62,139 nt of DNA, taken from a virus. Position numbers and translations under genes: made by a program. The stretch spans positions 1 to 62,139 of the IMG/VR virus record IMGVR_UViG_3300023179_000110. The stretch is one strand, 5' to 3'. Every line of letters begins with the position of its first letter. The first letter of the stretch is position 1. Below the pieces are notes generated by a model. The model saw only the letters and a program-made list of their open reading frames with translations, made no database searches and had not been told where the DNA came from. Below, piece after piece: positions 4,528-42,858 of this stretch.

Positions 4528-4540
4528 GTGTTAACTCCTC

Positions 4541-4933: not shown

Positions 4934-4938
4934 GGTAA

Positions 4939-5706: not shown

Positions 5707-5809
5707 AACATCCTCTGTTCCGAACATGCAGGTTTAACTGCAAATCTTGACTTGCTCAAAATTAACACAAATCAATTACACTGAGGGTTCGACTTTCGGC
5801 GTGTCTTAT

Positions 5810-9327: not shown

Positions 9328-9364
9328 TTGAACTCCTCACCGAAAGAATAGCAAACAAGGTTGA

Positions 9365-9436
9365 CTATTGAGGTTCCATCGGCTCAGGCAATTTTCTTGG
9401 GTCAATAATGTCCACTATTTCGTCTTTTTCGGTCAT
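9365..9436 (-). CDS. Acidic micro-ORF, 23 residues
   Basis: ATG at 9436 overlaps the TGA of the metallopeptidase gene as ATGA, and the frame ends with TAG at 9365. The peptide starts MTEKDEIVDII and is acidic and Pro-rich at its end (KLPEPMEPQ). It fills most of the gap before the zeta-like gene. Coupled overlap is its main support; no function known. Confidence 0.4.
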   Translation of the reverse strand: MTEKDEIVDIIDPRKLPEPMEPQ

Positions 9437-10224: not shown

Positions 10225-11090
10225 TTAATAAAAACGCCTTCTTCTTCTGTATTAAAATTTTTTGATGCAACAATTAACGGGTCATAAGGCAACTGATTTT
10301 GAATCACTGTTACTTCATAAAAATTATCGTTGATTTTTTCAACTTTTGAAACCGTGTATGTACCAGAAGCAATAACTTCATTGCCGTTTGACACTTCTTC
10401 GCTTTTATTGCTTGTATGTGGAACTAATGGTATTCCACGCAATCCATCAATTTTCATTAAAATGGATGTTTCTGCTGGGTTGCCATAATAATCTTTTGCA
10501 AAAGTTGTTGCCAGTTCTTCATCAGGAGTCCAAGATGCAATTCCTTCTTTAAATGTGGAACCAACCGTTGTTAATTTTTTAACTTGTTCAGAACCCCATT
10601 TACTGAAAGACAAACCTCTGTACATTTTTTCATTTAATGGTTTAGCGGTTGTCAAGGCTAAAAGAATTTGTTTAGTTGAATCAAAAATTTCTTTGTAGTC
10701 AACATCTCTTCTTATTTTGCCATCTTCATCTAATTTTGGATAATAATTGTCTGAAACATTAGTTAATACTCTGTAAGCACTACGAATGTTGTCAACATTG
10801 GCGTATGGGTATTTATTTGTTCCGCCTATCCAAGCATCAGCAAAAGCATTAATCATTGGAATTTGAGAATTATCAGCCCAGTTGCCGTGAGTTGACTGGT
10901 CGTGCTGACCTGCAAGATGTTTTTGAATTTTTTGCGTATCAAGCCAATCTAAAACATCCCCATTGGTCAAAGTAATAATTGAACTCAAAGACACTTTGCG
11001 ACCATCAGCCAATTGAAGCATGGTTTCAGGGGTCAATTCTCCGTCCCAAGACCAAGAACCGCCAAAATCAGGTGCAAGCAACTTAAACAT
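10221..11090 (-). CDS. Tagged ADP-ribosyltransferase-like protein
   Basis: I place the start at 11090 because the N-terminus (MFKLLAPDFGGSWSWDGEL) then aligns with the small paralogue at 15129-15314. The 289-residue protein has this N-terminal domain, a tag at about residues 56-71, and a C-terminal R-S-E type ADP-ribosyltransferase pattern: MYRGLSFS (Arg, near 155), IASWTPDEE (the Ser-Thr strand), and NGNEVIASGTY (the acidic loop). Such enzymes transfer ADP-ribose from NAD to target proteins. The EVI block lacks a clear ExE, so activity needs testing. Both ends overlap neighbours. Confidence 0.72.
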   Translation of the reverse strand: MFKLLAPDFGGSWSWDGELTPETMLQLADGRKVSLSSIITLTNGDVLDWLDTQKIQKHLAGQHDQSTHGNWADNSQIPMINAFADAWIGGTNKYPYANVDNIRSAYRVLTNVSDNYYPKLDEDGKIRRDVDYKEIFDSTKQILLALTTAKPLNEKMYRGLSFSKWGSEQVKKLTTVGSTFKEGIASWTPDEELATTFAKDYYGNPAETSILMKIDGLRGIPLVPHTSNKSEEVSNGNEVIASGTYTVSKVEKINDNFYEVTVIQNQLPYDPLIVASKNFNTEEEGVFIK

Positions 11091-14000: not shown

Positions 14001-14361
14001 CACGATAAATGGTCACATGAGCATCGGGTTTATTACGAATACTTACAAGCAAATCATGGATTTTTTTATCTTCAGCCCTATTACTGCCACCGTGCCCATA
14101 AATTCTGGCACCATCAGAATCATAAACATCTTTTGGGTAAATGTTTCCATTGCCAGTTAAATCGTATGCAGGGGCACCATCTTCGGGTTCTGGAGGACGG
14201 TGACTCATTTGATAATCAGTTTCATTGTTGGCACCGCCATGTGCCCAATCGCCGTGTGAACTCTGGTCGTGTTGTCCTGCAAGATGTTTTTCAACTTTCA
14301 CACCATGTTTAACACCCAAATCGGGGTAAACCACATCAAAAGTCACATCATCTAAAATCAT
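11083..14361 (-). CDS. Four-module tagged protein: ART-like, ParB-like, unknown, DUF3626-like
   Basis: This 1092-residue protein contains four tags (about residues 24-41, 187-203, 436-450, 651-667), each opening a module. Module 1 has VTIYRAVPKGVTKVNAGDWV and ends TDGNSLYEWSYYP, an ART-like fold found in phage proteins. Module 2 has a ParB-like core with YVIDGHHRWAAALFLG. Module 3 (DGYMVSRNSDKFGTV...RVHLDVTD) is unrecognised. Module 4 has GDAQVIFKDSVKHRTTATIGDSLDG and VETQIHGGLSLDDV, shared with 15311-16843 and 19724-23113 and resembling DUF3626. It looks like a concatenation of units elsewhere encoded singly. The tag of module 3 is divergent (HGRRFN for HGNWAH). Confidence 0.75.
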   Translation of the reverse strand: MILDDVTFDVVYPDLGVKHGVKVEKHLAGQHDQSSHGDWAHGGANNETDYQMSHRPPEPEDGAPAYDLTGNGNIYPKDVYDSDGARIYGHGGSNRAEDKKIHDLLVSIRNKPDAHVTIYRAVPKGVTKVNAGDWVTISEEYAKLHGESSVTARFGDYDILHTTVHANEIYTDGNSLYEWSYYPQAVQKHLSGQHDQATHGNWAGHHGHAVDRKNTAEGNPYPHPVQTAYDKVVAGEEGIVSPIDAPAWLDAMADRKDNPDLTNLEILGTQYFTRDNLGIMRDKMPQIPAGTQNDFIKAMQDRGVKVEMVDVAPFGLHPIQAEISASKSGKIMRSMEKDGVGDTPITISKDDYVIDGHHRWAAALFLGLKPKHKNVKMKALKVDLPHDELIKVVLAWNKTVGIKPIALGESNKENMKKMLAFDIAVLRAKIKSTEVEKHLQGQHDQSTHGRRFNSHVAPEVVHDVLSQVAENGGLSIKLTDGSLPPDGYMVSRNSDKFGTVVMASDFFNEDKGAKILGAFLVKNKAELGSGRAYLGVWHETTKTVNGVTVEIPKDQQRVHLDVTDKIVDKKQAISLGRRRNQISIWDVVNFDEIQTGGTGGTVEKRNNQHRSVAEAVKRDDGRGNYDLGGTDLQEVAKTSVIVKVPVNSFFFKHFAGQHDQSSHGNWAHGHSTDRPYELDFSGRKKSFSSIPAMSYEEDVANSFGPIARILQTDSTSWVGTPVSTAEFYYAVLALKNSSKSSENFSGLDAIKKLTKTIFNDPNYPQIPKKFMDTAIANTWWAKQIIEQNKEFSDSNIDELRRKAINVWAEQDFQSARAYLVAENKFVQNKIRQIKFPSGQTVGEVIDGVAQSLLDQMQEIANNNDVSLTMSTGKLKKFITEDHYRTASETTLSGKGATRQKYMERRNEFEFDIMGIPSETPNDKRPVYGVIGRSSKESTYGDAQVIFKDSVKHRTTATIGDSLDGFLNGTHWLEDYANGKVSVNDLWDTHFGLLINTFNNSNRSGKTYNWKNSISTGKPEWGGITGYSGKADLREIATYGYVETQIHGGLSLDDVATIVIPKSTSLTKATKEMLAGKGIEVVVGEHIEKGYYV

Positions 14362-15059
14362 GAAAACACCCCATTGCCACTTGTGTCATAAGTAAAGAAA
14401 TCCAAAACATTAGCCTGTTTTTCTAACCCTTCATTGCGTAAAAGGTATTTCCAAGTGTCCAAAAATGGCAAATTATGACCGCCGTGACCAGCCTCACCTT
14501 TAATCCAGTTTCCTTCCAAAATGTGCGAAATTTCATGTAACAAAACAAATTGGCTAACACCTGAAGGTTTGTAAATTAATACGGGAATGTTTGCACCATG
14601 CAACGGATGACCTTCTGGGACATCTCCACGGGTAATTCCAGCCTCAATACCGTCAACTAAGTATTGGTCGTTTTCGTCAGGATACGGTTTCCAAACCCTG
14701 TTACCGTAACCGTATTTGGCAAATACTTCATCAACATAAGCCACAAGTTCTTTTGCATCAGTGAAAATTTTTCCTTGCCCAACTGCTTGCAAAGGTGCTG
14801 AATCCAAAGACAACCCTGCACCAAATTCAATGTTTTTATCGTCAGGGGCATCAGTTGGGACAACATCGCTCCAGTCTTTACTGTCTTTCCAAGGTATTGC
14901 TACACCAGTCAAATTATTTGGCTTATGGATAACACCACCATTTTTAGCCCAATTTCCGTGCGAACTCTGGTCGTGCTGTCCCTCTAAATGCTTGATTAAA
15001 ACAGCATCAGAAGATTCAACCACCCCAATGAACTTGGCGAGCCGTGCAATGCGTGACAC
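14358..15059 (-). CDS. Tagged HExxH metallopeptidase-like protein
   Basis: I choose the GTG at 15059 because AGGAGG lies four bases upstream; a longer TTG frame begins at 15083. The 233-residue product has a tag at about residues 22-38 and LLHEISHILEGNW near residue 174, a zincin motif, followed by GEAGHGGHNLPFLDTWK which could supply further ligands. The fold resembles secreted or virion peptidases but no family is certain. A 45-base gap with no gene separates it from the next upstream gene. Confidence 0.7.
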   Translation of the reverse strand: MSRIARLAKFIGVVESSDAVLIKHLEGQHDQSSHGNWAKNGGVIHKPNNLTGVAIPWKDSKDWSDVVPTDAPDDKNIEFGAGLSLDSAPLQAVGQGKIFTDAKELVAYVDEVFAKYGYGNRVWKPYPDENDQYLVDGIEAGITRGDVPEGHPLHGANIPVLIYKPSGVSQFVLLHEISHILEGNWIKGEAGHGGHNLPFLDTWKYLLRNEGLEKQANVLDFFTYDTSGNGVFS

Positions 15060-15128
15060 AAAACCTCCTGAAATACTAAACAAGAATACCTCAGAAGCAT
15101 TACCTCAAAAGGTCAACTCGCTTTAGAA

Positions 15129-15314
15129 CTAAACAGTATTTTCATTCCCTTGATTGAGCCACCATTCAAGAGCATCACCATTGGTGCGACTAATTATGTG
15201 ACTAAATAAAGTTTCTGACCCATCAGCAACAATAATTTTAGTTTCAGGAGTCAACTCACCGTCCCAAGACCAAGAACCGCCAAAATCAGGGCAAATAACT
15301 TTATGTTGGCTCAT
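15129..15314 (-). CDS. Orphan copy of the PDFGGSWSWDGELTPET domain
   Basis: A 61-residue protein that matches the N-terminal domain of the ART-like gene at 10221-11090: CPDFGGSWSWDGELTPETK, then ADGSETLFSHIISRTNGDALEWWL. It stops where the paralogue continues into the tag. It may be a stand-alone domain or a remnant left when a downstream tagged module was lost by recombination. The start overlaps the preceding stop by four bases. Confidence 0.65.
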   Translation of the reverse strand: MSQHKVICPDFGGSWSWDGELTPETKIIVADGSETLFSHIISRTNGDALEWWLNQGNENTV

Positions 15315-16843
15315 CCTTCTAACCCGTAACTTTCATAATCGGTTTTTTCAATTTGACTAATGTTAGGTTCAATAATTATTTTAATTCCTTGTTTTGTTAA
15401 CTTATTTTGCAATGCTTTAGGAATCGCCGTTTCGCTAGTAATAATAACTTCAGCAATGTCAGATGCTTTAACACCACCATGAACTTGTGCTTCCACATAA
15501 TTGTACATAGTGCTTTGTTTAAAATCATTTTTAGAACCAGTAATAAATTGGTTAACATCAAGATTTGAATTTGGATTATCATTTTTGACAGAAGTAAAAT
15601 TCAATTCATAATTTCTGTCATAAATTGACCTAGTGGTCATTTCGCCAGAATAATGCCAAAAAGTTTCAGGTGAAATTTTGCCGTCCCTGACTTCGGAAGC
15701 CAAAAAACCACCTTTTGCATTGCCATCTAAAGAATCATCAACAGTTAAAGTGGTTCTACTTTTAACTTCATCTTTTAAAACAATACGAACATCGCCATAA
15801 TTAACAGTATTTGCATTTGCCAAATAGCCGTAAACAGGTCGTTGCTCATTTGGAATGTCTTCTGGAACTCCCATAAGCGTTTCAGCCCGTTTACGAACTG
15901 CAATGTAATCATTTCTTGTACTGCCTTTGCCTACAGATGTAACTTCATAAACTGTTTTAAATCTTCCATCATCTATTAAACGCTTTAATCGTGAAGCAGA
16001 TGTTTGAATTGTAATTGGTTGTTCTGTAGCCATTTTTTTCAATTTACTCAATTGAGATTTAGCCAACCCGTCCATAATTTCTTTAATGGTTTCACCCGAT
16101 TGCATTTTAATTTCGCCAAGTTTTTTAATAACAAAAGCATTTTCTTTTAAAGCATACTGTCGAAATTCTTCCGCAGAAACAACTTTATTTAAATTATGAA
16201 ATTCTAATTCTTGTTCACCGTACATACCGCCTTTAGGCATTGGTGGGTCAACTAAACCTTCATCACGAGTAGCCCATCTGTACTGGATACTATTTCGCCA
16301 TTCTTCAAGTTGCCATTTTTGCCATCTTTCTTCCCATTCTTTAGGCATAGCAGGATAATCAGGGTCAGATTTTATTTTTTCTAAAACCCTATTTTTGTAA
16401 TTTCCCCAATCTCTCCATTTTCCTTCTTCAAGGTAAGTCGCCTCTTCGCCTGTCTGTTGTGCGTAGCGACTATTAGCCAAAGTAAGCATTGAAGCAAAAT
16501 AACCATCATAAGTTCTTTTATTTAAATCTAAAGGTATGGCATGAATGTTTGGGTCGCTTATTTGAAAATAATCATACAAATCTCTGGTAATGCCACCGAA
16601 GGAATAAATTTTGTCATCGTATCTACCTAGTAAAGTTCCTTTATGATAAGCCAAAATCGGTTTAAGTTCATACGGCATTTCGCCATGTGCCCAGTTACCG
16701 TGGGAACTTTGGTCATGCTGACCTGCCAGATGCTTGACCAAACTTAAAGGAGGAACAACAAAAATTGTTTTAGCCACAGGTTTATCTAAGCCAAAAGTAC
16801 AACCAATTTTTTGACCCGAAAACATTGGAGGACTTTGCAACAT
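15311..16843 (-). CDS. Tagged protein with DUF3626-like C-terminal domain
   Basis: This 510-residue protein has the linker AKTIFVVPPLSLV, one tag (about 36-54), a helical centre, and a C-terminal domain with RPVYGYLANANTVNYGDVRIVLKD (quoted only as landmark around residues 335-358), SRTTLTVDDSLDGN and YVEAQVHGGVKASDI. The same blocks recur in module 4 of the 1092-residue protein and modules 1 and 4 of the 1129-residue protein. They resemble DUF3626, whose activity is unknown to me. A GGAAGAAG ribosome site precedes the ATG. Confidence 0.7.
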   Translation of the reverse strand: MLQSPPMFSGQKIGCTFGLDKPVAKTIFVVPPLSLVKHLAGQHDQSSHGNWAHGEMPYELKPILAYHKGTLLGRYDDKIYSFGGITRDLYDYFQISDPNIHAIPLDLNKRTYDGYFASMLTLANSRYAQQTGEEATYLEEGKWRDWGNYKNRVLEKIKSDPDYPAMPKEWEERWQKWQLEEWRNSIQYRWATRDEGLVDPPMPKGGMYGEQELEFHNLNKVVSAEEFRQYALKENAFVIKKLGEIKMQSGETIKEIMDGLAKSQLSKLKKMATEQPITIQTSASRLKRLIDDGRFKTVYEVTSVGKGSTRNDYIAVRKRAETLMGVPEDIPNEQRPVYGYLANANTVNYGDVRIVLKDEVKSRTTLTVDDSLDGNAKGGFLASEVRDGKISPETFWHYSGEMTTRSIYDRNYELNFTSVKNDNPNSNLDVNQFITGSKNDFKQSTMYNYVEAQVHGGVKASDIAEVIITSETAIPKALQNKLTKQGIKIIIEPNISQIEKTDYESYGLEG

Positions 16844-16849
16844 ACTAAA

Positions 16850-18529
16850 TCACTTCTTCCATTTGTACTGCATACCCCATTTATCTTCTTTAGCCAAAGC
16901 CTGAACAATAGGAATTTCAGACTTACCATCAGTCATAAACCATTCAGCAAACGCTTCAGCATAACCCTCGCCAGTATTGCTTCTACCATACGGACTTAAC
17001 TGATTTTCATGAGCCATTAACATTAAACCTGTAGTTTGTTCGTTTTTGTAACCGCTTCCAGCCATTGTTCCATTGCCACCTTTATGGAAAAGGGCATCGT
17101 AATTAGTTGCATGACCCCATTCATGAGCCAAAAAGTATTCCATAGCAAAAAATTGTTTGGCATTGGCTGAAGGCATCCAACTCTGACGAGCCGTATCTTC
17201 ATCAGCGTAATGATTCATGTCTTCAGGACGAACAGCAATAATAACTTTGTGAATTGCAGGTTTTACTAATTCACGAACAGTTCTAAGTTGTTTTTCATCA
17301 AATACCGTTTTCATTGTTTCTGGTTGAGATAAATTAACAGTCCAACCTCGTTGCATTTCGGAATCGTAATCAAAATCATTACTTACAACAATTTTTACTT
17401 CAGACATTGGTGACAACGGTGCAATTGTTTGCAAATCATGAACTAAAGCCAACACATCTCGTTTTTGGTCTTCAGTAATGTTGTCCCTGTTGTCAAAAAA
17501 AGTTGCAAAACTAGAACCGTTAATTTTCGATTCATGAACATCAGCGTTTTCAAGTACAAGGTCATTTACGCCAAAAGCATGCCTAAAATTAGTTTTTGTT
17601 TTAGCCCAATTGCCGTGGGTAGATTGGTCATGCTGACCTGCAAGATGTTTACTTACATCAGGCAACTCAATAAAAGAAGGGGGTGGTGTTTTACTAAAAG
17701 TATCAGCAATTAAAATACTTGAACCCATAGTTTTAACTAAATTAAAAACACCAGTATCCCAACCATACTTTGAAGCCATTTCTTGAACATGAGGCAAAGA
17801 GGTTTGTCCAGCCGAAAAAAACCATTCCGCAAAAGCCTCAGCATAAGACTCCATTGTGTTTTCCATCCCATAAGTAGTTTGTCCTTCTTTTTTCCATTTC
17901 CATTCTGATTTGCTTTGAGCAAGATAATTTTTGTATTCATCATGAGCCAACTGGTCATCAACGAGTTGGCTTTGTGTTCTTTTATCAAGAGCGTGACCCC
18001 ATTCGTGGGCTAAAACAGACATGATGTAATTTGCTTTTGAATCTGCACGGGCAGGGTCGCCTCCCCATAAATTATGTTCTTCCTGTATTGCTGTTTCCAT
18101 ACTAAGAACTATTTCGCCTTTACCCAAAGTACAAAAACCTACAACACCAGACAAATGACCTTTGGCTTTGTAGTCTTCCATTTTGCTGTCATCAAATTCA
18201 ACACGCATTCCTTCAATTGGAAAATGCGTTTGCAATTCGGCAATAGTTTGATAAATAAGTTTTTTTGTATCATCACTTATTGTTCCATTTACTTCTTCAA
18301 AACCAACAAAAACTCTAGGAAATTCACCAGAAACGATAACATCGTGAGCAATGCCCACCAGTGTTTCATCAGTTATGTCTTGTACTGTGTATTTTGCTTC
18401 GCCATGTGCCCAGTTTCCGTGCGAACTCTGGTCATGCTGTCCAGCAAGATGTTTATTTACAGATAAAGAACGCAACCAAAAAGCATTAGCACCAGCATCA
18501 ATGTCAATTATCAACTTAACCACCACCAA
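16850..18529 (-). CDS. Tandem tagged HEWGH metallopeptidase
   Basis: This 559-residue protein is an internal duplication. Each half has a tag (about 25-43 and 292-307), a central helical region, an LAHEWGHA zinc motif (near 175 and 469) and a downstream YAEAFAEWF block whose Glu can be the third zinc ligand, as in gluzincins related to lethal-factor-like phage peptidases. The two halves differ in linker and loop lengths, so the duplication is old. The exact start is uncertain because TTG and GTG codons are stacked at 18518-18529, within a 14-base overlap with the upstream gene. Confidence 0.78.
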   Translation of the reverse strand: MVVVKLIIDIDAGANAFWLRSLSVNKHLAGQHDQSSHGNWAHGEAKYTVQDITDETLVGIAHDVIVSGEFPRVFVGFEEVNGTISDDTKKLIYQTIAELQTHFPIEGMRVEFDDSKMEDYKAKGHLSGVVGFCTLGKGEIVLSMETAIQEEHNLWGGDPARADSKANYIMSVLAHEWGHALDKRTQSQLVDDQLAHDEYKNYLAQSKSEWKWKKEGQTTYGMENTMESYAEAFAEWFFSAGQTSLPHVQEMASKYGWDTGVFNLVKTMGSSILIADTFSKTPPPSFIELPDVSKHLAGQHDQSTHGNWAKTKTNFRHAFGVNDLVLENADVHESKINGSSFATFFDNRDNITEDQKRDVLALVHDLQTIAPLSPMSEVKIVVSNDFDYDSEMQRGWTVNLSQPETMKTVFDEKQLRTVRELVKPAIHKVIIAVRPEDMNHYADEDTARQSWMPSANAKQFFAMEYFLAHEWGHATNYDALFHKGGNGTMAGSGYKNEQTTGLMLMAHENQLSPYGRSNTGEGYAEAFAEWFMTDGKSEIPIVQALAKEDKWGMQYKWKK

Positions 18530-19721
18530 AATGACTCATGATGCCAGCCAAAGCAGACCTAGGTTGACTTACCCAAACATTTGCTTGAATTGTTCCACCA
18601 AGTAAAACATGTTCTTGTTCAACTTCTGCACCTAACCCAGTAGCGTAAGTAGAAAAAACATTTTCTACAGGAACTACAATTTTAGTAACAGCATTGCCAA
18701 AAGTTTTAGCCACACTTTCCTTACTTGTCCAGCAACTCAAAGGTTGCATGCGAATTGTTTGTTTTGATTCTGTTCCATACAAACTTTCATCAAGTAAATC
18801 AAAGCCACGCCATAACTCCACAGCCTTGATGCCTTCGTCAGCAAAAGTTTTTTGAGTTTCCTCATACATAGCCGTAGTAATAGACTGCAAAACATTATGA
18901 TTTTTAACTAAAATTTTTGCAACTTGAGATGCAATTTTTTCAGGATGCCCAGTAACAAAAGTATTTTTCAACCCAAAATCCTCACGGACGACATCATTTA
19001 ACGCATAATACAAAGGATTAGAGTTCTGCAACTTAGCCCATTGTTCCATGACTTCAACAACAGCAAATTGCTTAATCATTTTTTCTTTTTGAGCAACAGT
19101 TTGCGTTTTATTATTAGTTCCATTTAAAGAAGAATTAGTTCTATCAACCCAAAGAGTGTTGTAATAAGACCATTTAAAAACAGCGTTAGGGTCATTGATG
19201 GCTTCTATTATTTGTTGAGGAGTTGTAAAAGTTGCAGTTCCTCCTGTTTTTACCGATTCTTCAGATACATAATTGATGCCATTAGAAAAACCTTCTGGAA
19301 TAATCATTGGTGTATTTAAAAATTCTTCAATAGGAACATCTGTAAGATGTTTTACAACATTGTTGGATGCAATCCATACCGTTTTATCTTTAGATGAAAA
19401 ATTACTGGAATTGCCAACTTGTTCATAAAATTCTTTAGTTGATGGTCTGGGAGCAATACTGTAATAATCTGCTTCAACATCATGTTGTGCCCAGTTCCCG
19501 TGTGAACTCTGGTCGTGTTGTCCTGACATGTGCTTGGCAAAAGCATCAACTACTGTCCAATTACCAACTTTTTGCCATTTATCAAATAGCCCAACTGTGC
19601 TTGTTGTGCCATTTTTCTGGCGTAAATACCCGTATGGATAACCGTCAGCATCAACGAAATCAAAAATCAACTCGGCTCCGTCAGCCCTTACAGCGTAAAC
19701 ACTACCTTTGGTTAGTTCCAT
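18516..19721 (-). CDS. Tagged ADP-ribosyltransferase (R-S-ExE type)
   Basis: This 401-residue protein has an N-terminal beta domain (GAELIFDFVDADGYPYGYL), a tag at about 63-79 and a C-terminal ADP-ribosyltransferase: VELWRGFD (Arg, near 302), MQPLSCWTSKESVAKTFG (Ser-Thr strand), and EVEQEHVLLGG (ExE with the catalytic Glu, near 366-371). This is the clearest ART in the block, with all three catalytic elements. T4-type phages inject comparable enzymes to modify host RNA polymerase; whether this one has such a target is unknown. Confidence 0.82.
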   Translation of the reverse strand: MELTKGSVYAVRADGAELIFDFVDADGYPYGYLRQKNGTTSTVGLFDKWQKVGNWTVVDAFAKHMSGQHDQSSHGNWAQHDVEADYYSIAPRPSTKEFYEQVGNSSNFSSKDKTVWIASNNVVKHLTDVPIEEFLNTPMIIPEGFSNGINYVSEESVKTGGTATFTTPQQIIEAINDPNAVFKWSYYNTLWVDRTNSSLNGTNNKTQTVAQKEKMIKQFAVVEVMEQWAKLQNSNPLYYALNDVVREDFGLKNTFVTGHPEKIASQVAKILVKNHNVLQSITTAMYEETQKTFADEGIKAVELWRGFDLLDESLYGTESKQTIRMQPLSCWTSKESVAKTFGNAVTKIVVPVENVFSTYATGLGAEVEQEHVLLGGTIQANVWVSQPRSALAGIMSHFGGG

Positions 19722-19723
19722 AA

Positions 19724-22700
19724 TTAATACTCTACCACCCTAATTCCCTTGGGAACAAGAGGGCTGATGTCAGCAAAACTGTCGGAAGGAATGTAAACAG
19801 CCTCAACATCACTCAATTTTGCTCCATCGTGAATTTGGGCTTCAAAATAAGAACCTTCATTAAGAAATCCAATTTCATAAGATTCATTGTTCCAGCCTTC
19901 GTCTTTTGCTATGTTGTACAGAATTCTGTCTGAGGCTCGCCAAGCATCGTAAGGGGTAATTTCTTTTTGAGTCATAGAAACAGGAATGCAACCAGTTCCC
20001 AAAGAATCCCCAACTGTCACGGTTGACCGAGGTTTAACATTATCTTTAAAAACTATTCGGATGTCGCCATACTGCCACGGTCCATTAATTAAAACATTTT
20101 CATCTAAATCATCTTCCGAAACATAACCATAAAGAGGGCGTTTAGAAACAGGTTCGTTTATGGGAATACTTTGACAACGCAACTCACTAGCAAGACGGCT
20201 TGCTTTACTAAATAACCCATTGCTTTTTTGTGTTTCAAATTGTGTTTTAAATCTTTGGTCATCGCTTTGTAATAACTCAGTAAACGATTCTTCGTCAATA
20301 GCCATGCAAATTTTTCCATCTGTTTGCATGTTTTTTAAATCATCAGCAATAAAACTTTGATAAAGCAACTCAGAATTATCTAATTTGCGATAAGTGGCTA
20401 ATTTAACTACTTCGTCAGATAATCTACGAAGCATTGCTTCATACATAATGACTGCGGAATTGTCTTGAGTAATAACTAAAGCATTTCTTTCCCCCTTAAA
20501 TGTGTTATCGTCACCACCACCAGTTTTTAAAAAAACAGCATTTGGATAAACTTTTTTAACTTGTTCTTGCAATTCTTTGCAAATTTTAGAATTAGCGAAA
20601 TCATCTGTATGAAAAAATTGCACCAGTATGTCTTCAGATAAACTTCCAGCACTTAACTGATAAGAGTCTGTACTAATTTTGTCAGCCAAATCAATAGAAA
20701 ATTTCTTAACAGCATTTAAAAATGTTGTTGTGTCAGCAAAATCATGTACCGCACCGTGCGACCAATTGCCGTGAGTGGATTGGTCATGTTGTCCTAAATA
20801 ATGTTTTGACAATGAACTTGGATTAGTCAAAACAGAAGTAAACGCATCTACTCGGTCAAACGGAATTGGCAAATTTGTTTTTTCATAGCCATCAAAATCC
20901 AAACGCCAATTGTCAACGGGGTCATAACGAAAACGAACAATTCGATAATTGTCCCCATTGGTAGGAGCGTAAAATGCTCCCGTTGAACGATGACTGGCAA
21001 CTGTTCCTTCGTTATTATCCAAATTCATTCTGGCATCTGATTGAAAAAATCCTCGTTCTTTTGCTTGATTGAACTCGGCTTCCGATACGACACGGTACAA
21101 ATGTTTCAAAGGTTTTCGAGCAATAATTTTTCCGTAAATTGGAGAAGATACTCTTTCGGAATCTGGAACTTTAATCCATTCTTGCGGAGTTACTGCCATT
21201 ACTTCTAAAACTTCAGGAGCAGATTGACCATCCCGTGTAGAAGCCATACGCAATGCAGTTTGTCCTTCAATCAAGTTGCCTCTTGAATCGTATCTTTCAG
21301 GATGTGCATTACGAGGAGATTGTAAAGATTTAGATTCTTCCGTCAAAATAGCATTCCAAGCAGATTCATTATCGGGTGAATTTAATTGAATTTCTTTGCC
21401 ATCAGCCCAATTGCCGTGGGTAGATTGGTCGTGCTGACCAGCCAAATGTTTTTCAACTGAATTAGGATTTTTAACTACTAAAGCACCAGCATTTAAAACA
21501 ACCATTTCTCGGTCAGGCAAACTTGTATCGGCTGGGTCATAAAGCATTGGACTGTCATTAATTGCGTCATAGCCCATTGCCAAAGCCATAAGATTTCTAG
21601 TTGTTAATCTATCAGTAAAAAACCAACTTGTTGGAAAATCTGTTAAAGCCGTATGACGAAGTAAATTAATTTGAGATTCTAGCAATCCACTATTTGCCAA
21701 TACCAAATTTGCTTCAGAAGAAGGAATAGTTAAAATTTTTGCATTAGGTTTAAAAGCCATTTTAACTATTTGTTTTTCATCACTTTTGTAACCCCAAATT
21801 TCAGCCTCTTTTTTCGTATGAGCACCATAAAGACCAATTCCATTTCTACCCATAGAAATGTAAGGCAACTCCGAAGCCATAAATTGTTTGATTTTATCTT
21901 CAGCAGATAATCTAATGTTGTCTGAAGTTTCCAAATCAAAAGCAGAACCTTGCTGAAAAGTTCGCCAAAATTCCATACCCTGTGAAGTATCACCAAAAGT
22001 AGGTTTACCAGTTTTGCCTGTGGCTTTTAAAACATCTTGCAAAGTTTTACGCCAAACATCAAGGCTGTCGTATGGTTTATTCGCGTTAATTATTGACGCA
22101 AGTTGCTGAATGCTAATTTCATTTGACCCATCACCATCAGCCCAGTTACCGTGTGAACTCTGGTCATGTTTACCCTGAAGATGTTTAACCAAAAAAGACT
22201 TAACGGGAACTTTTACAATTACTGAAGATTTAGCAACATTATTTAATAACGCTTCAGTATCAATGTTTGAATACTGTTTAACCCAAGCAAGTTCTTGTTC
22301 ATACTCTGGAATTGGATTTCCGAAAAGTTCAAATTTTCCTCTTTCTCTAGCAAGTTTTATTTTTGTTGCTTTTTGTTCTCTTGTTGCTGGATGAGTACTT
22401 GGAAAATGAACAACAATTCCAGCCTTTGCACCTGCTTGAAGAATTTTTTCTTTATTTATTTTTGAAACTTGTCCGTTAATAATAATTTCTTGAACATCTT
22501 TAGGAGTTAAACCACCAAAAATTTGAAACTCTGGATAATCATCAGAGGTGGTGTAAATAATGTCATTTGGCAAACTTTCTTTGTCCCCTAAAATTTGTTC
22601 ATTAGTAATTTTACCTGTTGCTGAAACAGGAGTTTGCTGATAAAGCAAACTATCTGAATTAGTAAAAGTTGAGCGTTTTTTTACTTCATCTTTTAAAACA

Positions 22701-23113
22701 ACAAGCACCTCACCAAAATGTTCGGTAGCCCCCATCAAAAAAATACCGTTAGGTTCAATGGCAGAAGCAAAAATAGGCCGCATTGAAGCAGGAGCATCAA
22801 GAGGAATCCCCCAAGTTCTTAACTCTGATTGTTTTCTTCTATCAATCCCTAATGAACCTCTAGTTTCACCACTTTCGTGATAATTTTTGAACTTACCTTC
22901 ATTGAGAAAAGCCAAAACTGCTTCTTCTGGCATCTGAATACCCATAGTCGCGTCACGATGTTTTCTAAAATTTTCAAAATACCATTTATGAGATTGCCTA
23001 ATCATTGTTTTTAATTTTTGAGCATTACTATCAGCCCAGTTGCCGTGTGAACTTTGGTCATGTTGACCTGCAAGATGCTTGGATACGGGAACTACAACAT
23101 AAACAGATTTCAT
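19724..23113 (-). CDS. Four-module tagged protein: two DUF3626-like and two ART-like modules
   Basis: The 1129-residue product starts with a ten-residue linker (MKSVYVVVPV) and four tags at about 11-27, 310-326, 554-569 and 769-787. Modules 1 and 4 have the repeated domain (GEVLVVLKDEVKKRSTF; GDIRIVFKDNVKPRSTVTVGDSL; YFEAQIHDGAKLSDV). Module 2 has NGIGLYGAHTKKEAEIWGY and REMVVLNAGALVV, and module 3 has LYRVVSEAEFNQAKERGFF, both ART-like in pattern but without all catalytic residues obvious to me. It is the first gene after MuF, overlapping it by four bases. Confidence 0.74.
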   Translation of the reverse strand: MKSVYVVVPVSKHLAGQHDQSSHGNWADSNAQKLKTMIRQSHKWYFENFRKHRDATMGIQMPEEAVLAFLNEGKFKNYHESGETRGSLGIDRRKQSELRTWGIPLDAPASMRPIFASAIEPNGIFLMGATEHFGEVLVVLKDEVKKRSTFTNSDSLLYQQTPVSATGKITNEQILGDKESLPNDIIYTTSDDYPEFQIFGGLTPKDVQEIIINGQVSKINKEKILQAGAKAGIVVHFPSTHPATREQKATKIKLARERGKFELFGNPIPEYEQELAWVKQYSNIDTEALLNNVAKSSVIVKVPVKSFLVKHLQGKHDQSSHGNWADGDGSNEISIQQLASIINANKPYDSLDVWRKTLQDVLKATGKTGKPTFGDTSQGMEFWRTFQQGSAFDLETSDNIRLSAEDKIKQFMASELPYISMGRNGIGLYGAHTKKEAEIWGYKSDEKQIVKMAFKPNAKILTIPSSEANLVLANSGLLESQINLLRHTALTDFPTSWFFTDRLTTRNLMALAMGYDAINDSPMLYDPADTSLPDREMVVLNAGALVVKNPNSVEKHLAGQHDQSTHGNWADGKEIQLNSPDNESAWNAILTEESKSLQSPRNAHPERYDSRGNLIEGQTALRMASTRDGQSAPEVLEVMAVTPQEWIKVPDSERVSSPIYGKIIARKPLKHLYRVVSEAEFNQAKERGFFQSDARMNLDNNEGTVASHRSTGAFYAPTNGDNYRIVRFRYDPVDNWRLDFDGYEKTNLPIPFDRVDAFTSVLTNPSSLSKHYLGQHDQSTHGNWSHGAVHDFADTTTFLNAVKKFSIDLADKISTDSYQLSAGSLSEDILVQFFHTDDFANSKICKELQEQVKKVYPNAVFLKTGGGDDNTFKGERNALVITQDNSAVIMYEAMLRRLSDEVVKLATYRKLDNSELLYQSFIADDLKNMQTDGKICMAIDEESFTELLQSDDQRFKTQFETQKSNGLFSKASRLASELRCQSIPINEPVSKRPLYGYVSEDDLDENVLINGPWQYGDIRIVFKDNVKPRSTVTVGDSLGTGCIPVSMTQKEITPYDAWRASDRILYNIAKDEGWNNESYEIGFLNEGSYFEAQIHDGAKLSDVEAVYIPSDSFADISPLVPKGIRVVEY

Positions 23114-24114
23114 GCCTGTTCCCCCGAATACCTCATTTGCCCAGTCCTAATCCACTCAGCATCATTCAAACCACGGCTAGGAGGCACCAGAAACGCCGTA
23201 CAGCGACAATGAGGATGGGCAGGTGGCATAAGTAGTCCATTGTCAAAAGCACTGTCCCAACGCACCTGAACTCCATCTAACGGAGCACATTTATCACAAG
23301 GGGGGCCACCAGCATTATTTTTGTAAACCGTTTGCCACTGTTTCATGGAATCACCAGCAACCCAACCACCATCAACAGCCTGTTGCCAAGCCAACTGACG
23401 ACCCATGTTTTGAGCAATCTGAATCTCGGTACGAGCAATCATTGTGGCACGGGCACGAATCAATTTTTGGCGATACTTGTCGGTCAACAAATCTGTTTTT
23501 TCAAGTGCTTTTTCAGGCTTTAACCCTTGCTTTAACAAGTTTTTGTAGGTGCGGTCATAAAACTTGTCAACTGCCTGTGCCCAACGAGGATGCAAACCAA
23601 TAACTTGACGCAATTTCTTAGCCGTGTAGGGAACCGAAATCTCTTTGCTGAAAGAATCGCTAATAATCTGACGAATTGCCAAACGCATTGAATCGTTAAT
23701 CGCTGTCACTAAACGCCCAGCCTGACGCTCTGCATACAAATCCGCCACGGGGTTATGAATGTTAAAAGTGAACTCACCTTTAGGTTTACCCGTCAAAGTG
23801 TTAGCGTTACCCCAATCAGGTGTTGCCTCAATTAACGGTTTTATTTCCTGACCAGCCAAAACACCAGCATTATTGATAACTGCGGTAATCGAATCACGAA
23901 TAATTTGACCAATGGTGTCAACATTAATTGTCAATAATGCTTGCTCAAGCAAATCAGGTTGCAGATTGATAATCGCTGAAGCCAATGCGTCTGCATCTGC
24001 AATTCGCCCAGCACGATACAAAGCATTACGAATAATGTTGTACAACTGCTCTTCAGTTACATTAAAAACTGGAGGTACAGGTACCGAAGATTTGGCTTTC
24101 CTGACTAATGGCAT
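23110..24114 (-). CDS. MuF-like head morphogenesis protein
   Basis: The ATG at 24114 is preferred to a TTG three bases earlier. The product is 334 residues. The C-terminal third has the MuF signature: ARTEIQIAQNMGRQLAW, GGPPCDKCAPLDGVQV, then MPPAHPHCRCTAF, with Cys and His positions as in the family. MuF proteins are minor capsid proteins bound near the portal and can carry C-terminal effector domains. Here no effector is fused; instead the tagged proteins follow immediately. Confidence 0.85.
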   Translation of the reverse strand: MPLVRKAKSSVPVPPVFNVTEEQLYNIIRNALYRAGRIADADALASAIINLQPDLLEQALLTINVDTIGQIIRDSITAVINNAGVLAGQEIKPLIEATPDWGNANTLTGKPKGEFTFNIHNPVADLYAERQAGRLVTAINDSMRLAIRQIISDSFSKEISVPYTAKKLRQVIGLHPRWAQAVDKFYDRTYKNLLKQGLKPEKALEKTDLLTDKYRQKLIRARATMIARTEIQIAQNMGRQLAWQQAVDGGWVAGDSMKQWQTVYKNNAGGPPCDKCAPLDGVQVRWDSAFDNGLLMPPAHPHCRCTAFLVPPSRGLNDAEWIRTGQMRYSGEQA

Positions 24115-24122
24115 CAAAACCC

Positions 24123-25574
24123 CTAGAAAGCATTATCGGATTGTCCAGCATCCTGTTTGCTAGGTGCAGGTTGTTTAGCATTTGGTTGCTGTGCAGGAGG
24201 TTGAACTGCTTGACCTTGCTGTGGTGGTTGACCTGTAGTTAATGGCATTCCCGTAGCAGGGTCAACGGCACCTGTGGTTTGAGCATTGTGTTCAGCAGGT
24301 GGAAGCGAGCCAAGTTCACGCAAATAATCTTCAAGATTCGGGTCAGAAACAATGATTCCTGCATTAGCCAACTTGGTGACATAATCTGCAACTTCGGTCA
24401 AATCAACATGAGCAATGTCACCATAGGTCAACTTAGGAAGGCGTGAAGTATCCATTCCGTTCAAACGCATTAAACGAGTAATGGCATGCTGATTGATAAC
24501 TTCGGCGATGGACTTGGCAATAGCGTCAACTGCCATTGACCACAAATCCATTTTTGCGGTGCCCAATGCAAAAGAACCAACATTTTCATGACCCAACAAA
24601 ATAAAGTCAGATAGCACCGACATCGCAATTCGCTGGTCGTAACGAGAAATAATTTTGTCCGTATCGAACTGACGGGAACCACCAGCCGACAAAAGGGTTA
24701 AATCAAATAGTTTTTTGCCTGATTCGTCATACTGTGCAGGAAAAACTACGCCTTCTTGTTCGTTTCGCTTTATGTTCTGAACAATTTCAACAATGCTATT
24801 TAAAACCGCTTTTTGTGCATCTGTAGCCGTAGATGAAAGAAACTCAGGTGGAACATAAGCGACAGGAAGACCAGCCAAATCACGCTCAATACCAATTGCT
24901 TCGATTTCTTCAACACGCTTTTTAAAGAAATACGGACGGTAAGCGTTCCTAAGCATGGAACGACCTTCAGGATTATTTTTTTGGTTTGTGGTACGGAAAA
25001 GTAATGCTTTTTCGATTGGGACATAATGGGTTCCACCGCCTGAAGGGTCATTTTGAATCATGCAGTTCACGCCACCATCGTCATCAAATTCCCAACGCAT
25101 TAAGGAATCTTGACTACGGATGGCAAATTTACGCCAACCAATTTTGCCGTCTGTGTATTGTGAACGCTTTGTGGGGTCATTTTCGTCAGGTCCAACTCGG
25201 CGTTTGTAAACAATTTCGTGGTATGACCAGCCGAAAGTAAGCATTGACAGGATGCTCGCTAAGGTTGCGTCCCATGAATCGGACATGTCAAAAAGACAAG
25301 ATTCAATAAAATCGGAAACTTCGACATCTTTTTCTTTTGGGTCACCTTCAGCATTTGGCTCAAGATACGGGTCAACTCGCCATTCAAGGCGAACAATTAC
25401 TTTTTCTATTGCGTAAAGGATTGAGCCAATTACGGGGTCGTTATCAGCCATTTCACGGTAAGCACGAATACCGTTCTTGTTGCGTAACGCTGTAAGGAAC
25501 TCTTCAAAAACTGTACCGCCAGCACGGTGAAGCCCTGTGGAGCCTAACTCAGAAAAATCTGGTTTTGGTGCCAT
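24123..25574 (-). CDS. Portal protein
   Basis: This 483-residue protein has features of phage portals: ADNDPVIGSILYAIEKVIVRLEW near the start, the ALLFRTTNQKNNPEGRSML block, a helical FFKKRVEEIEAIG, and a Pro/Gln-rich C-terminal tail. Portals form the dodecameric ring through which DNA enters and leaves. GTAAGGATG lies upstream as ribosome site. The 72-base gap upstream may hold the start of the head operon transcript. Confidence 0.88.
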   Translation of the reverse strand: MAPKPDFSELGSTGLHRAGGTVFEEFLTALRNKNGIRAYREMADNDPVIGSILYAIEKVIVRLEWRVDPYLEPNAEGDPKEKDVEVSDFIESCLFDMSDSWDATLASILSMLTFGWSYHEIVYKRRVGPDENDPTKRSQYTDGKIGWRKFAIRSQDSLMRWEFDDDGGVNCMIQNDPSGGGTHYVPIEKALLFRTTNQKNNPEGRSMLRNAYRPYFFKKRVEEIEAIGIERDLAGLPVAYVPPEFLSSTATDAQKAVLNSIVEIVQNIKRNEQEGVVFPAQYDESGKKLFDLTLLSAGGSRQFDTDKIISRYDQRIAMSVLSDFILLGHENVGSFALGTAKMDLWSMAVDAIAKSIAEVINQHAITRLMRLNGMDTSRLPKLTYGDIAHVDLTEVADYVTKLANAGIIVSDPNLEDYLRELGSLPPAEHNAQTTGAVDPATGMPLTTGQPPQQGQAVQPPAQQPNAKQPAPSKQDAGQSDNAF

Positions 25575-39745: not shown

Positions 39746-40069
39746 CTATTTGTTGGTGCGGTTGCTTACGGTGATGGTTCCCTGCATAAGTGATGTTGGA
39801 TGACCACTGGTATCTGTGATTTCAAAATCGTACACAAATTCGCCAATACCCATAGCGGTGGCTTGGGCACTTGTAATTGTTATGGTGAAACTGCCGTTAG
39901 CAAGGGTAATGCCATTATTTTTGGTCAGGGCTAATAACACAGATGAATCAAGGTGTGCCCGTACAGTAAATCTGGCTGTGTAATCGGTTAAATTGTATCC
40001 AGCCATGGTGAACTGTTGGCTCCAATAAGAAGCCGTAGGTACCTCAAAATCGTATGTGCCGTATTTCAT
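39746..40069 (-). CDS. Baseplate/fibre-associated beta protein
   Basis: 107 residues with alternating strands (ARFTVRAHLDSSVLLALTK, NGSFTITITSAQATAM, YDFEITDTSG). This is the pattern of small BppU-like N-terminal domains that link fibres to the baseplate. It lies directly before the fibre gene and overlaps the tagged protein stop by one base. Confidence 0.65.
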   Translation of the reverse strand: MKYGTYDFEVPTASYWSQQFTMAGYNLTDYTARFTVRAHLDSSVLLALTKNNGITLANGSFTITITSAQATAMGIGEFVYDFEITDTSGHPTSLMQGTITVSNRTNK

Positions 40070-40677
40070 TAATCATCAGCCTCTAAAGATTTTTTTAAAA
40101 GATTTTTAGTAGTAGCAAATTTACGCAAATGGGCTTCCGCATAACCAAATCCAGCCAAATAAGCCGTAGCATAATCGTATGTACCAAAATCATTAGTAAT
40201 TATGTATCGTTTTGGTTTTCGTAAACTACTCAACTTTACAGGTTTTTCACCGTGGCTAGTTTTTTGCTCCCAATACTTAATGCCATCCTCAAACGCTTTA
40301 CGCCCAGTGTTTCTGCTATTACCAACTGATGCATAGGCTCGCATGGCCGCTGTATGTGTTAATTTTTTAAACACTTCAATGTCATCATTTTTTATTGCGT
40401 CTTCAATTTCTTGTGGACTGAATTTGCGTTTTGTTGATGCTGGGCTTACATAATCTGATTTGGGTTTTGTTGTGTTGGTGGTGCTGGGTGCATTATTAGT
40501 GGTGTTAGGTGTTGGATTAGGTGCAACATCAACATTGGAATTGCCACCATTATTGGAACCACCATGTGCCCAATTACCGTGTGCTGATTGGTCGCCTGAA
40601 CCATGCTTCTCTAGTTTTTCTGCTAAAGATTCCATCTGGTCTTCTAGTTCTTGAAGAATTTCGCCAAGATTGCCCAT
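40069..40677 (-). CDS. Tagged protein near terminase (202 residues)
   Basis: N-terminal amphipathic coil (LGEILQELEDQMESLAEKL) leads straight into a tag variant, EKHGSGDQSAHGNWAHGG (about 23-40), then a low-complexity Asn/Thr linker and a helical C-terminal domain with SRNTGRKAFEDGIKYWEQK and ATAYLAGFGYAEAHL. It is outside the accessory block yet shares the tag. Possibly a fibre or baseplate-associated protein. A weak relation to the next gene is visible. Confidence 0.7.
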   Translation of the reverse strand: MGNLGEILQELEDQMESLAEKLEKHGSGDQSAHGNWAHGGSNNGGNSNVDVAPNPTPNTTNNAPSTTNTTKPKSDYVSPASTKRKFSPQEIEDAIKNDDIEVFKKLTHTAAMRAYASVGNSRNTGRKAFEDGIKYWEQKTSHGEKPVKLSSLRKPKRYIITNDFGTYDYATAYLAGFGYAEAHLRKFATTKNLLKKSLEADD

Positions 40678-40694
40678 CGTTAACTCCTAAATTT

Positions 40695-41204
40695 TTAATA
40701 ATTATTTGCGTTCGGATGATGCTCTGCAAGATACATGCCAAAATCGTAAGCATTTCTTTCTTCGGGAGTCATGTCTTCAACACCCCAATTGGTGTCATAG
40801 CCCATTGTTGATGCTAAACCTGAATCGTATTTTTTCCCATGATTAATGCCATCTCGCCCCATGTCTATGGCTTGTTTAAATTTTCGACCTCGTTGGCGTT
40901 GTGTTGTTAACCATTTGCCCAATTGTGCATTTGAAGCGGTTGACCAATCTTTCTGGGTAGTGCCAGCAAAAGGTGCTGAAGTTGATGGTTTTACATCTTC
41001 TGAAGTCAATTTTATTTTTTGTCGGGTTGAAACAACGGCTGGACCTGATGTGGGTTTACCGCTAATAATTTTTTTGTCCCCACCTGAACCACCTGTAGCC
41101 CAATTACCATGAGAACTCTGGTCATGAGAACCGCCACCATGTTTTTCTAAACGGGTACGCAAAGATTCAATTTGTGTTTCTAATGCTTTTAATAAATTTT
41201 CCAC
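40695..41204 (-). CDS. Tagged protein near terminase (169 residues)
   Basis: Begins with MENLLKALETQIESLRTRLE, a coiled coil, then the tag HGGGSHDQSSHGNWATGG (about 20-37), a Thr/Pro/Lys linker and a C-terminal helical domain (GRKFKQAIDMGRDG, YDFGMYLAEHH). Same design as its neighbour, so the two are probably diverged duplicates. First gene after terminase. Confidence 0.7.
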   Translation of the reverse strand: MENLLKALETQIESLRTRLEKHGGGSHDQSSHGNWATGGSGGDKKIISGKPTSGPAVVSTRQKIKLTSEDVKPSTSAPFAGTTQKDWSTASNAQLGKWLTTQRQRGRKFKQAIDMGRDGINHGKKYDSGLASTMGYDTNWGVEDMTPEERNAYDFGMYLAEHHPNANNY

Positions 41205-41253: not shown

Positions 41254-42858
41254 TTAGACTACTCGCCACCCGTTTGCTTGACCCAATGACACGGGAACAG
41301 CAGGAATAACGGCTCGACCCTTTGATGGTTCGTACATCGCTAAAAGGATTGCTTCACCACGGTCAGGGGAAGTCATGCCACGGCGTTTCATTTCCACCTT
41401 TGATTCGATTTGGATGCGTCCAGCAGAATCGGATTTGAATGTTGGGGTAGATAATTGGGCTAAGGTTGCTCTATCCGTATCAAGGGCAACATCTTGCTCT
41501 TTAGCGTCATTAGGTTGTAGCAATAATCGCCCGTTCCACCACATTTCGGCTCTTTGATTGCGGAACTTATCAGGGTCATTTGCTCGTTCTGAAACATTCA
41601 CACCAATAATGTTTGCGTTCCACTGTTTTTCGTCACACCACTTTTTGAGCAATGAAACGACACCCCAGCCCACGCCAATGGTGTCAATTTTTACATGTAA
41701 TTTGTCTTGAACTCCACGCTCTTCATGGATTGCTAGGCATTCCTCGATTTCACGGGCTACAACACCTGCAACATCCACGGCGTTATGGTTTTGAATACCA
41801 GAGGATTTGTGGGTGATTTTGACCCTGTAGCCGTCCATACGGGCAATTACGAACTCGTCACCACCATCGGATGCAACATCCACCCCAAGCCTAATACGGG
41901 GCGATTCTAGGGGGTTTTCGTTTTGTGATGCTAAATCAGCCCACATAAACGGAATTACCTTGTTGGCAACTGCTCGTGGGAATCTTGCATGAACACGGGC
42001 TTCCACGAAAGGGGAATCCTCACCGAATTCGCCTACAACATCGTCAACCCACCTTTGGTCAACTAAATGCGTTGCTACAGCATGCGGAGCGATGTGAACA
42101 GGGCAGGATTGGCACATTCCCGTTTCTTCCCCTGTGAAATTGGGTGTGTCATAAGCACCAATGGGAATTGTTTTGTACAAATCGCTATTACAGGCTCGCT
42201 CAAACCATGAATCTTCTTGGTCGGTAGGTGGATTACCCAAAAGTAATAAACGGGTATTTCCACCCGTCATGAGGGCTTCTAATGAGCGTCCTACAACTTC
42301 ACCAATACCGCCAGCCTCATCCACGATAATGAGCAAATTGGGCATGTGAATACCTTGGGCCGCCGACTCATCATAGGGATTTGGGCTAAATCCGTAGGCA
42401 ACGATGTCCCCGTTAACTTTCCATGTCTGGGTCAGCACCTCACCCTTCAATTTCGCTTTTGTGGCGGTTTTGCGAATGTGGGGCCAGATAATGTTGCGTA
42501 CCTGACGGTGTGTTGGAGCGATAGTAACGCATAGCGTTGTACCTACGGGATGAGCCGATACCCACCAAGCGGCCAGACGGGCTGAAAGGTGAGATTTTCC
42601 AGGTCCATGGCATGCTGGAACTGCTACACGCTGGTTTTCTAGGATTGCGTTGGCGATTTCACGCTGTTTTGACCACATGACCTCACCCAAACCTTCGGTG
42701 ATGAAGCCAACTGGGTCTTTTTCCCATTTTGCCCACGGGTTATCAATTTCGGCATCCAGCAGGTTTGATAATGCTAGTCGTTCGTCAGGTTCTAATCCTG
42801 CGTAGATTCGCATGCGTTCCTGTGGGTCGGCTTGGAGCAAACGGTCAACTAAACGCAT
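41254..42858 (-). CDS. terL: Terminase large subunit
   Basis: 534 residues. The ATPase has Walker A VPACHGPGKSHLSAR (about 79-93), a coupling region, and Walker B LLIIVDEAGG. The nuclease half has IRLGVDVASDGGDEFV and HVKIDTIGVG, giving the acidic residues of the RNase H-like fold. It powers DNA packaging and cuts the concatemer. The 10-base distance to TerS indicates one transcript. Confidence 0.93.
   Translation of the reverse strand: MRLVDRLLQADPQERMRIYAGLEPDERLALSNLLDAEIDNPWAKWEKDPVGFITEGLGEVMWSKQREIANAILENQRVAVPACHGPGKSHLSARLAAWWVSAHPVGTTLCVTIAPTHRQVRNIIWPHIRKTATKAKLKGEVLTQTWKVNGDIVAYGFSPNPYDESAAQGIHMPNLLIIVDEAGGIGEVVGRSLEALMTGGNTRLLLLGNPPTDQEDSWFERACNSDLYKTIPIGAYDTPNFTGEETGMCQSCPVHIAPHAVATHLVDQRWVDDVVGEFGEDSPFVEARVHARFPRAVANKVIPFMWADLASQNENPLESPRIRLGVDVASDGGDEFVIARMDGYRVKITHKSSGIQNHNAVDVAGVVAREIEECLAIHEERGVQDKLHVKIDTIGVGWGVVSLLKKWCDEKQWNANIIGVNVSERANDPDKFRNQRAEMWWNGRLLLQPNDAKEQDVALDTDRATLAQLSTPTFKSDSAGRIQIESKVEMKRRGMTSPDRGEAILLAMYEPSKGRAVIPAVPVSLGQANGWRVV

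What the first reader, a model, noticed from the sequence alone, without database searches (positions are those of the whole stretch)
40558..41148. The same tag appears in two proteins beside the terminase, after a coiled coil
The 169- and 202-residue proteins between TerL and the tail fibre have coiled coil, tag (variants HGGGSHDQSSHGNWA and HGSGDQSAHGNWA), linker, helical domain. They are about 17 kb from the main block. Either the tag partner is available in more than one part of the particle, or these proteins are adaptors that gather the tagged effectors.
Basis: partly seen in the sequence, partly recalled or inferred. Interest (0 to 1): 0.75.

Follow-up and report, generated by a model that had tools for sequence, protein, structure and literature searches.

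The report
Extra tagged proteins beside phage terminase
A phage known only from environmental sequence puts the same short protein tag it has on its 17 effector modules onto two small coiled-coil proteins beside its DNA-packaging gene; the tag is real and widespread, but these two proteins look like an optional extra rather than a needed adaptor.

Summary
Two paralogous genes (169 and 202 aa) between TerL and the tail-fibre genes each encode a three-heptad coil, the tag, a linker and a helical tail. The window holds 19 tags on one strand; the core motif has a chance expectation of about zero.

The adaptor reading fails. The two closest relatives (TerL 98% and 95%) carry 19 and 15 tags but lack both genes; a 23-codon ORF made of the 202-aa protein's two ends remains. 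Only 4 of 73 TerL relatives have a tag beside TerL. What is conserved there is the coil: its best matches among 14,041 ORF starts are TerL-adjacent genes of one related group, with variable payload (tag, Hva1_TUDOR, phrog_2859 domain, nothing).

The tag proved more interesting: once per module, never tandem, internal copies 95% intact, found in all 62 portal relatives read. One relative (G045; capsid protein 94% identical to a normally tagged phage's) has none; another motif, DRSAAGRKAAxARWGNR, sits in the same places, including its TerL-adjacent protein. Best reading: a per-module head-cargo or processing signal, swapped nearly genome-wide; the two proteins are optional tagged, probably head-associated, proteins. 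No tag partner was identified; packaging is untested.

The parts
40695..41204 (-). tagA, 169-aa protein: coil, tag, linker, helical C-terminus; paralog of tagB
41142..41204 (-). tagA N-terminal coil (residues 1-21)
   Evidence: heptad test; helix 2-23 in low-confidence model
41097..41144 (-). tagA tag KHGGGSHDQSSHGNWA
40698..40955 (-). tagA C-terminal helical region; very weak HA-domain match (residues 89-110, E 0.0018, below Pfam cut-off)
40069..40677 (-). tagB, 202-aa protein: coil, tag, linker, helical C-terminus; its two ends survive as a 23-codon ORF in relatives L132 and L139
40606..40677 (-). tagB N-terminal coil (residues 1-24)
40567..40608 (-). tagB tag KHGSGDQSAHGNWA
41254..42858 (-). 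large terminase (phrog_2), upstream border of the slot
39746..40069 (-). phrog_1084 protein, downstream border of the slot (tail fibre follows at 39737-37470)
7267..23113 (-). main tagged block: 9 ORFs, 17 tags; DUF3626- and DRAT-type ART-like, ATLF- and SprT-type metallopeptidase-like, and Zeta domains
23110..25574 (-). MuF (23110-24117) and Mu-type portal (24123-25574), immediately upstream of the tagged block
6488..7267 (-). XkdF-type S78_2 prohead protease, immediately downstream of the tagged block; candidate reader of the tag (inferred from position only)
3550..5727 (-). scaffold-like protein (4939-5727) and major capsid protein (3550-4527)

Best explanation
The tag is a short cis-acting signal placed in front of each module that belongs to this phage's head-delivered protein set; each module reads leader - tag - flexible linker - domain. 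It most likely marks modules for head incorporation and/or for trimming at the leader/module joint, read by one head-assembly component (best guess, unproven: the XkdF-type prohead protease encoded right after the block). tagA and tagB are two further members of that set, made from an accessory gene slot beside TerL: the N-terminal coil is the leader, the tag is the signal, the helical tail is the payload. They are optional, neither adaptors for the effectors nor the tag's receptor. Shown: presence, anatomy, paralogy, absence from close relatives, conservation of the coil with variable payload, one tag per module, tag-class concordance including the TerL-adjacent protein in G045. Inferred: head location, reading by a single partner, processing.
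For: 19 tags in the window. Tags occur one per module: 366 proteins, gaps median 205 aa, minimum 115, usually followed by at least 93 aa, core intact in 97% of first and 95% of internal tags, so each module keeps its own. All 62 portal-relative loci with at least 1.5 kb downstream carry tags (60 class 1, 2 class 2; loose pattern, some near-duplicates); Arthrobacter phages Ottawa and Shrooms, with related TerL, portal and MCP, have none. Class swap: G045 has 7 DRSAAGRKAA-type tags plus one on its TerL-adjacent protein and no HDQ tag, although its MCP is 94% and portal 85% identical to HDQ-tagged G044; homologous effectors carry the other tag at the corresponding place. No locus held both of these classes (123 vs 8 loci). 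TerL-slot homology: the tagA/tagB coils rank TerL-adjacent genes of L125-L128 1-7 of 14,041 ORF N-termini. Payloads there: tag + Hva1_TUDOR, Hva1_TUDOR alone, phrog_2859 domain, coil only. A phrog_2859-type domain followed by a Tudor-like stretch precedes the capsid part of a polyprotein in Roseobacter phage CRP-811, and Tudor or tag alternate behind one helical N-terminus in head-block genes, pointing to the head.
Against: No virion proteomics; no structure with useful confidence; no detectable homolog of either C-terminal region. No head protein stands out as co-varying with tag class. One genome (L312) mixes class 1 with two HHDxxGRF class-3 motifs, so classes are not strictly exclusive. 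A processing role is only inferred. The small tagged head-block proteins of other phages have a different N-terminal family from tagA/tagB (the profile does not hit the window).
Confidence: 0.45

Rival explanations
1. Adaptors: tagA/tagB oligomerise through the coil and gather the tagged effectors.
For: Shared tag and a short coil; two genes in tandem.
Against: Absent in G002 and G003, which keep 19 and 15 tags; 69 of 73 TerL relatives and 11 more contigs from the tag scan lack any tag beside TerL; the proteins carry the same tag as the cargo rather than a visible receptor for it.
Confidence: 0.07
2. The tag is purely a prohead-protease cleavage joint that frees modules from polyproteins and cuts the coil leader off tagA/tagB, much as T4 internal proteins are trimmed by gp21.
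For: One tag per module, before each domain, internal tags nearly as intact as first ones; a leader precedes the tag; an XkdF-type protease gene follows the block.
Against: No cleavage data; 200 of 366 tagged proteins have a single tag, so freeing modules from polyproteins alone does not explain them; the His-rich core resembles no cleavage site I know (own knowledge).
Confidence: 0.2
3. tagA/tagB are small head-assembly accessories (not delivered), interchangeable with the Tudor / phrog_2859 proteins of the same slot.
For: Same slot and similar coil as coil-Tudor and coil-phrog_2859 proteins; those domain types sit before the capsid part of the CRP-811 polyprotein.
Against: Their own C-termini match neither domain; absent in G002/G003.
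Confidence: 0.18
4. The tag is a shuffling linker without a reader, spread by recombination among block genes; tagA/tagB caught it by the same route.
For: Tags sit at module borders; homologous modules carry different tags in different phages; within-genome resemblance of tags.
Against: Codons within one genome are diversified while residues are kept; core intact in 95-97% of cases (though detection favours intact copies); universal in the portal clade.
Confidence: 0.1

Closest known systems
Phage-type polyvalent proteins (Iyer et al. 2017, PMC5512222)
   Same: Multidomain ART / metallopeptidase proteins encoded beside portal, MuF and capsid genes, predicted to be packaged and injected.
   Different: Passages of the paper found with motif, linker, repeat, signal and scaffold describe no recurring short tag before each domain (not every passage was read). 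tagA and tagB have no recognisable enzyme domain.
T4 capsid-targeting sequence on internal proteins and Alt (own knowledge; PMC9026906 seen as a search hit only)
   Same: A short element shared by otherwise unrelated head-delivered proteins; in tagA/tagB a short helix precedes the signal.
   Different: Different sequence (from memory, not tested); here the tag recurs in front of every internal module, not only near the N-terminus, and exists in interchangeable classes.
MuF polymorphic toxins (PMC5576092, start of abstract only)
   Same: Same neighbourhood (portal-MuF) and toxin-like domains.
   Different: The modules are separate genes with a tag instead of a fused MuF domain.
PHROG 2859 and Hva1_TUDOR (PF11160) proteins
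   Same: Same TerL slot and similar N-terminal coil in relatives; the phrog_2859 profile itself covers a tag-like stretch (positions 269-290).
   Different: tagA/tagB carry neither domain.

Membership tests
Polyvalent proteins (phage type) | Two or more effector or enzyme domains in one chain | tested here: not met
   tagA/tagB: no Pfam, PHROG or NCBIfam domain above cut-off. Several ORFs of the main block carry two to four tagged modules.
Polyvalent proteins (phage type) | Encoded among virion genes | tested here: met
   Between TerL and fibre genes.
T4-type capsid-targeted internal proteins | Shared short signal on otherwise unrelated proteins of the head-gene neighbourhood | tested here: met
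   19 tags in 11 proteins; 366 tagged proteins in related contigs.
T4-type capsid-targeted internal proteins | Signal removed by prohead protease; protein packaged and ejected | not testable with these tools
   Needs virion mass spectrometry.
T4-type capsid-targeted internal proteins | Sequence homology to the T4 signal or internal proteins | not tested
   No T4 sequence was compared; only family libraries were searched.
Adaptor / receptor for the tag | Present whenever tagged effectors are present | tested here: not met
   Absent in G002 and G003 and in most TerL relatives.
MuF polymorphic toxin | MuF domain in the protein | tested here: not met
   No PF04233 in tagA/tagB.
Hva1_TUDOR / phrog_2859 slot proteins | The Tudor or phrog_2859 domain itself | tested here: not met
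   No match in tagA/tagB; slot and coil shared.

The most novel reading that the evidence does not exclude
Tailed phages of this clade use a near genome-wide, swappable address code: every head-delivered module, plus TerL-adjacent coil proteins, carries the same class of short tag (KH..HDQxxHGxW, DRSAAGRKAAxARWGNR or RDxxGKFAxxGG type) in front of its domain, read by one head component, and lineages change the whole set together.
Probability: 0.35. Interest if true: 0.85.

Novelty: new variant of a known kind. Interest (0 to 1): 0.6.

Why it matters
How tailed phages choose which proteins ride in the head is well understood for T4 but not for the many phages with large effector arsenals. A short, modular, class-swappable tag that occurs throughout a large clade of uncultivated phages would give a sequence handle to list their delivered proteins, including unrecognised ones such as these two, and a direct test: move the tag to a reporter. 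None of the tag sequences tried was found in the open-access literature.

Tried and rejected
(1) Homologs of tagA (whole) and of the tagB C-terminal region in IMG/VR: none; tagB in INPHARED phages: none. (2) Tag peptide by tblastn in isolated phages: none at E<=10, though degenerate tags could be missed with so short a query. (3) AlphaFold models of both proteins: pLDDT 38 and 46, not used for fold search. (4) Tag profile against PDB sequences: only a chance Rieske ferredoxin stretch, E 1.1; tagB vs hemerythrin-like E 0.02 not taken as real. (5) Looking for a head protein co-varying with tag class: MuF, XkdF, scaffold, portal and MCP identities show no outlier; XkdF N-termini vary but not visibly in step with class. 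(6) Tag as DNA-level repeat: rejected by codon variation. (7) Scan of GTDB genomes for the tag: only 6 hits, all MAG contigs, so no host assigned. (8) More TerL-slot coil genes: no new ones. (9) One call with wrong frame and one with an oversized region failed and were repeated.

Full report
Observation. The window is a 62,139-base virus record with its structural genes on the minus strand. Between TerL (42858-41254) and a phrog_1084 gene plus tail fibre lie two paralogous ORFs, tagA (41204-40695, 169 aa, GTG) and tagB (40677-40069, 202 aa, ATG), each with an AGGAG ribosome-binding site. Each reads coil (about three heptads), tag, linker, mostly helical tail (the models have low confidence). 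The tag occurs 19 times in the window, all on the minus strand: 17 in the block 23113-7267 and one each in tagA and tagB. The core motif is not expected by chance. Codons vary while residues do not, so conservation is at protein level.

The tagged block. It lies between portal/MuF (25574-23110) and an XkdF-type prohead protease, a Dps-like gene, a scaffold-like gene and the capsid gene. Its modules include DUF3626- and DRAT-type ART-like, ATLF- and SprT-type metallopeptidase-like, and Zeta domains (several below Pfam's curated cut-off). This matches the polyvalent-protein theme of Iyer et al. 2017 (PMC5512222). A DUF3626-like relative is annotated as minor head protein in Lactococcus phage TP901-1 and a Zeta relative as minor head protein in cyanophage PSS2.

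Are tagA and tagB needed by the tagged effectors? It seems not. Relatives G002 (L132, TerL 98%) and G003 (L139, TerL 95%) carry 19 and 15 tagged sites but have only a 23-codon ORF between TerL and the phrog_1084-type gene: MGNLGEILEELGLTTQKSLEADD or ...SLKADD. Its start matches the start of tagB (MGNLGEILQELE...) and its end the end of tagB (...KKSLEADD). The two relatives share one junction, so one event probably made it. In TerL DNA the window is 92.5% identical to L132, which is itself 92.7% identical to L139 (window-L139 88.0%), while downstream the window matches L139 better; exchange by recombination in this slot is therefore likely, and whether the short or the long form is older is open. 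Of 73 loci with a TerL at least 60% identical and at least 600 bases downstream, 4 have a tag within 3 kb (L126, L136, L150 with HDQ-type tags; L159 with the other class); 11 further contigs from the tag scan have none.

What is conserved in the slot. Comparing the coils of tagA and tagB with the first 60 residues of 14,041 ORFs, the seven best matches are all TerL-adjacent genes of L125-L128. Their payloads differ: tag + Pro-rich stretch + Hva1_TUDOR (L126), Hva1_TUDOR without tag (L125, L127), a phrog_2859 domain without tag (second gene of L125-L127), or coil only (L128; similarly L144). In Roseobacter phage CRP-811 a phrog_2859-type domain and a Tudor-like stretch precede the capsid part of one polypeptide (the Tudor-like and protease parts are read from the sequence, not tested by profile). 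In other tagged phages, head-block genes have a shared helical N-terminus followed by a Tudor domain, a tag, or both; L079 has two tagged ones in tandem before the scaffold gene. The same N-terminal family is TerL-adjacent in L136, L150 and L159. So small tagged proteins of this general build appear either in the head block or beside TerL, and the tag is optional in them. The window's two proteins are not detectably members of that helical family.

The tag as a signal. In 366 tagged proteins, tags are one per module: 200 proteins have one tag, 166 have two to eight; gaps have a median of 205 residues and a minimum of 115; internal tags keep their core in 237 of 250 cases, first tags in 355 of 366 (the proteins were chosen for having at least one intact tag). 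Internal tags score slightly lower than first ones (median 37.7 vs 40.0 bits). Sampling by portal homology rather than by tag, all 62 loci with at least 1.5 kb downstream have tags (loose pattern, some near-duplicate contigs, G045 included). The isolates Ottawa and Shrooms, with related head genes, have none. Within genomes, tags resemble each other more than across genomes for all features tested, 0 of 1000 shuffles, though genomes and tags are not independent.

Class swap. G045 (38 kb; portal, MuF, XkdF, scaffold, MCP all present) has no HDQ tag. At the corresponding places it has KADRSAAGRKAAxARWGNR-type motifs: four in a 781-aa protein (one divergent), one each in 377-, 387- and 903-aa proteins. 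Its TerL-adjacent 159-aa protein has GSRSEAGRKAAQARWGNR. Its MCP is 94% and its portal 85% identical to those of G044, which uses KHGSHDQSSHG tags. The 903-aa protein aligns with G044's 870-aa protein over 620 alignment columns (54%), the alignment ending just before the tag in both; a second class-2 contig (L243) carries a module 39% identical over 202 columns to the window's 302-aa protein, with the class-2 tag where the window has class 1. Among all loci held at that point, 123 had class 1, 8 had class 2 and none both. A third type, RDxxGKFAxMGGG, precedes the DUF3626-like protein after the portal and recurs in other head-region proteins of Actinomycetia phage DSL-LC01, and two HHDxxGRF motifs stand in module-border positions in L312, a genome that otherwise uses class 1. 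So tag class is mostly, not strictly, genome-wide.

Mechanism. Shown: anatomy, paralogy, optional presence, conserved coil with variable payload, one tag per module, class concordance between effectors and TerL-adjacent protein. Inferred: tags mark modules for the head and/or for trimming, read by one head component; tagA and tagB are extra members of the tagged set. The XkdF-type protease is the best candidate reader only by position; no co-variation was found.

Limits. All close relatives are metagenomic contigs and often fragments; no homolog of the two C-terminal regions was found; no virion data exist; the host is unknown; literature search covers open-access papers only.

Noticed in passing
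L218/L219 (G045) 13247-25192 of the contig: Whole head block with a different tag class (DRSAAGRKAAxARWGNR) in the places where relatives have HDQ tags.
   Followed up: yes
L132 and L139, about 11660-11733: 23-codon ORF made of the two ends of tagB, conserved between two relatives.
   Followed up: yes
window 6004-6501: Dps/ferritin-like gene inside the head operon, between protease and scaffold.
   Followed up: no
window 13015-13032: The one block tag whose end is degenerate (HDQSTHGRRF instead of HGNWA).
   Followed up: no
L116 2994-3623: Tag on the C-terminal side of what looks, by eye, like a prohead protease directly after a portal-like gene; no other case on a core head enzyme was noticed.
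   Followed up: no
L312 15050-17335 and 18056-18631: Class-3 motifs (NPHHDEIGRF, NRHHDDIGRF) at module borders in two proteins of a class-1 genome.
   Followed up: partly
L236-L241: Tag pattern in only six GTDB genome contigs, all MAGs of unrelated phyla; possibly viral contigs binned with them.
   Followed up: no
tag codons in the window: The Asp of the tag is GAC in all 19 copies although neighbouring codons vary.
   Followed up: no
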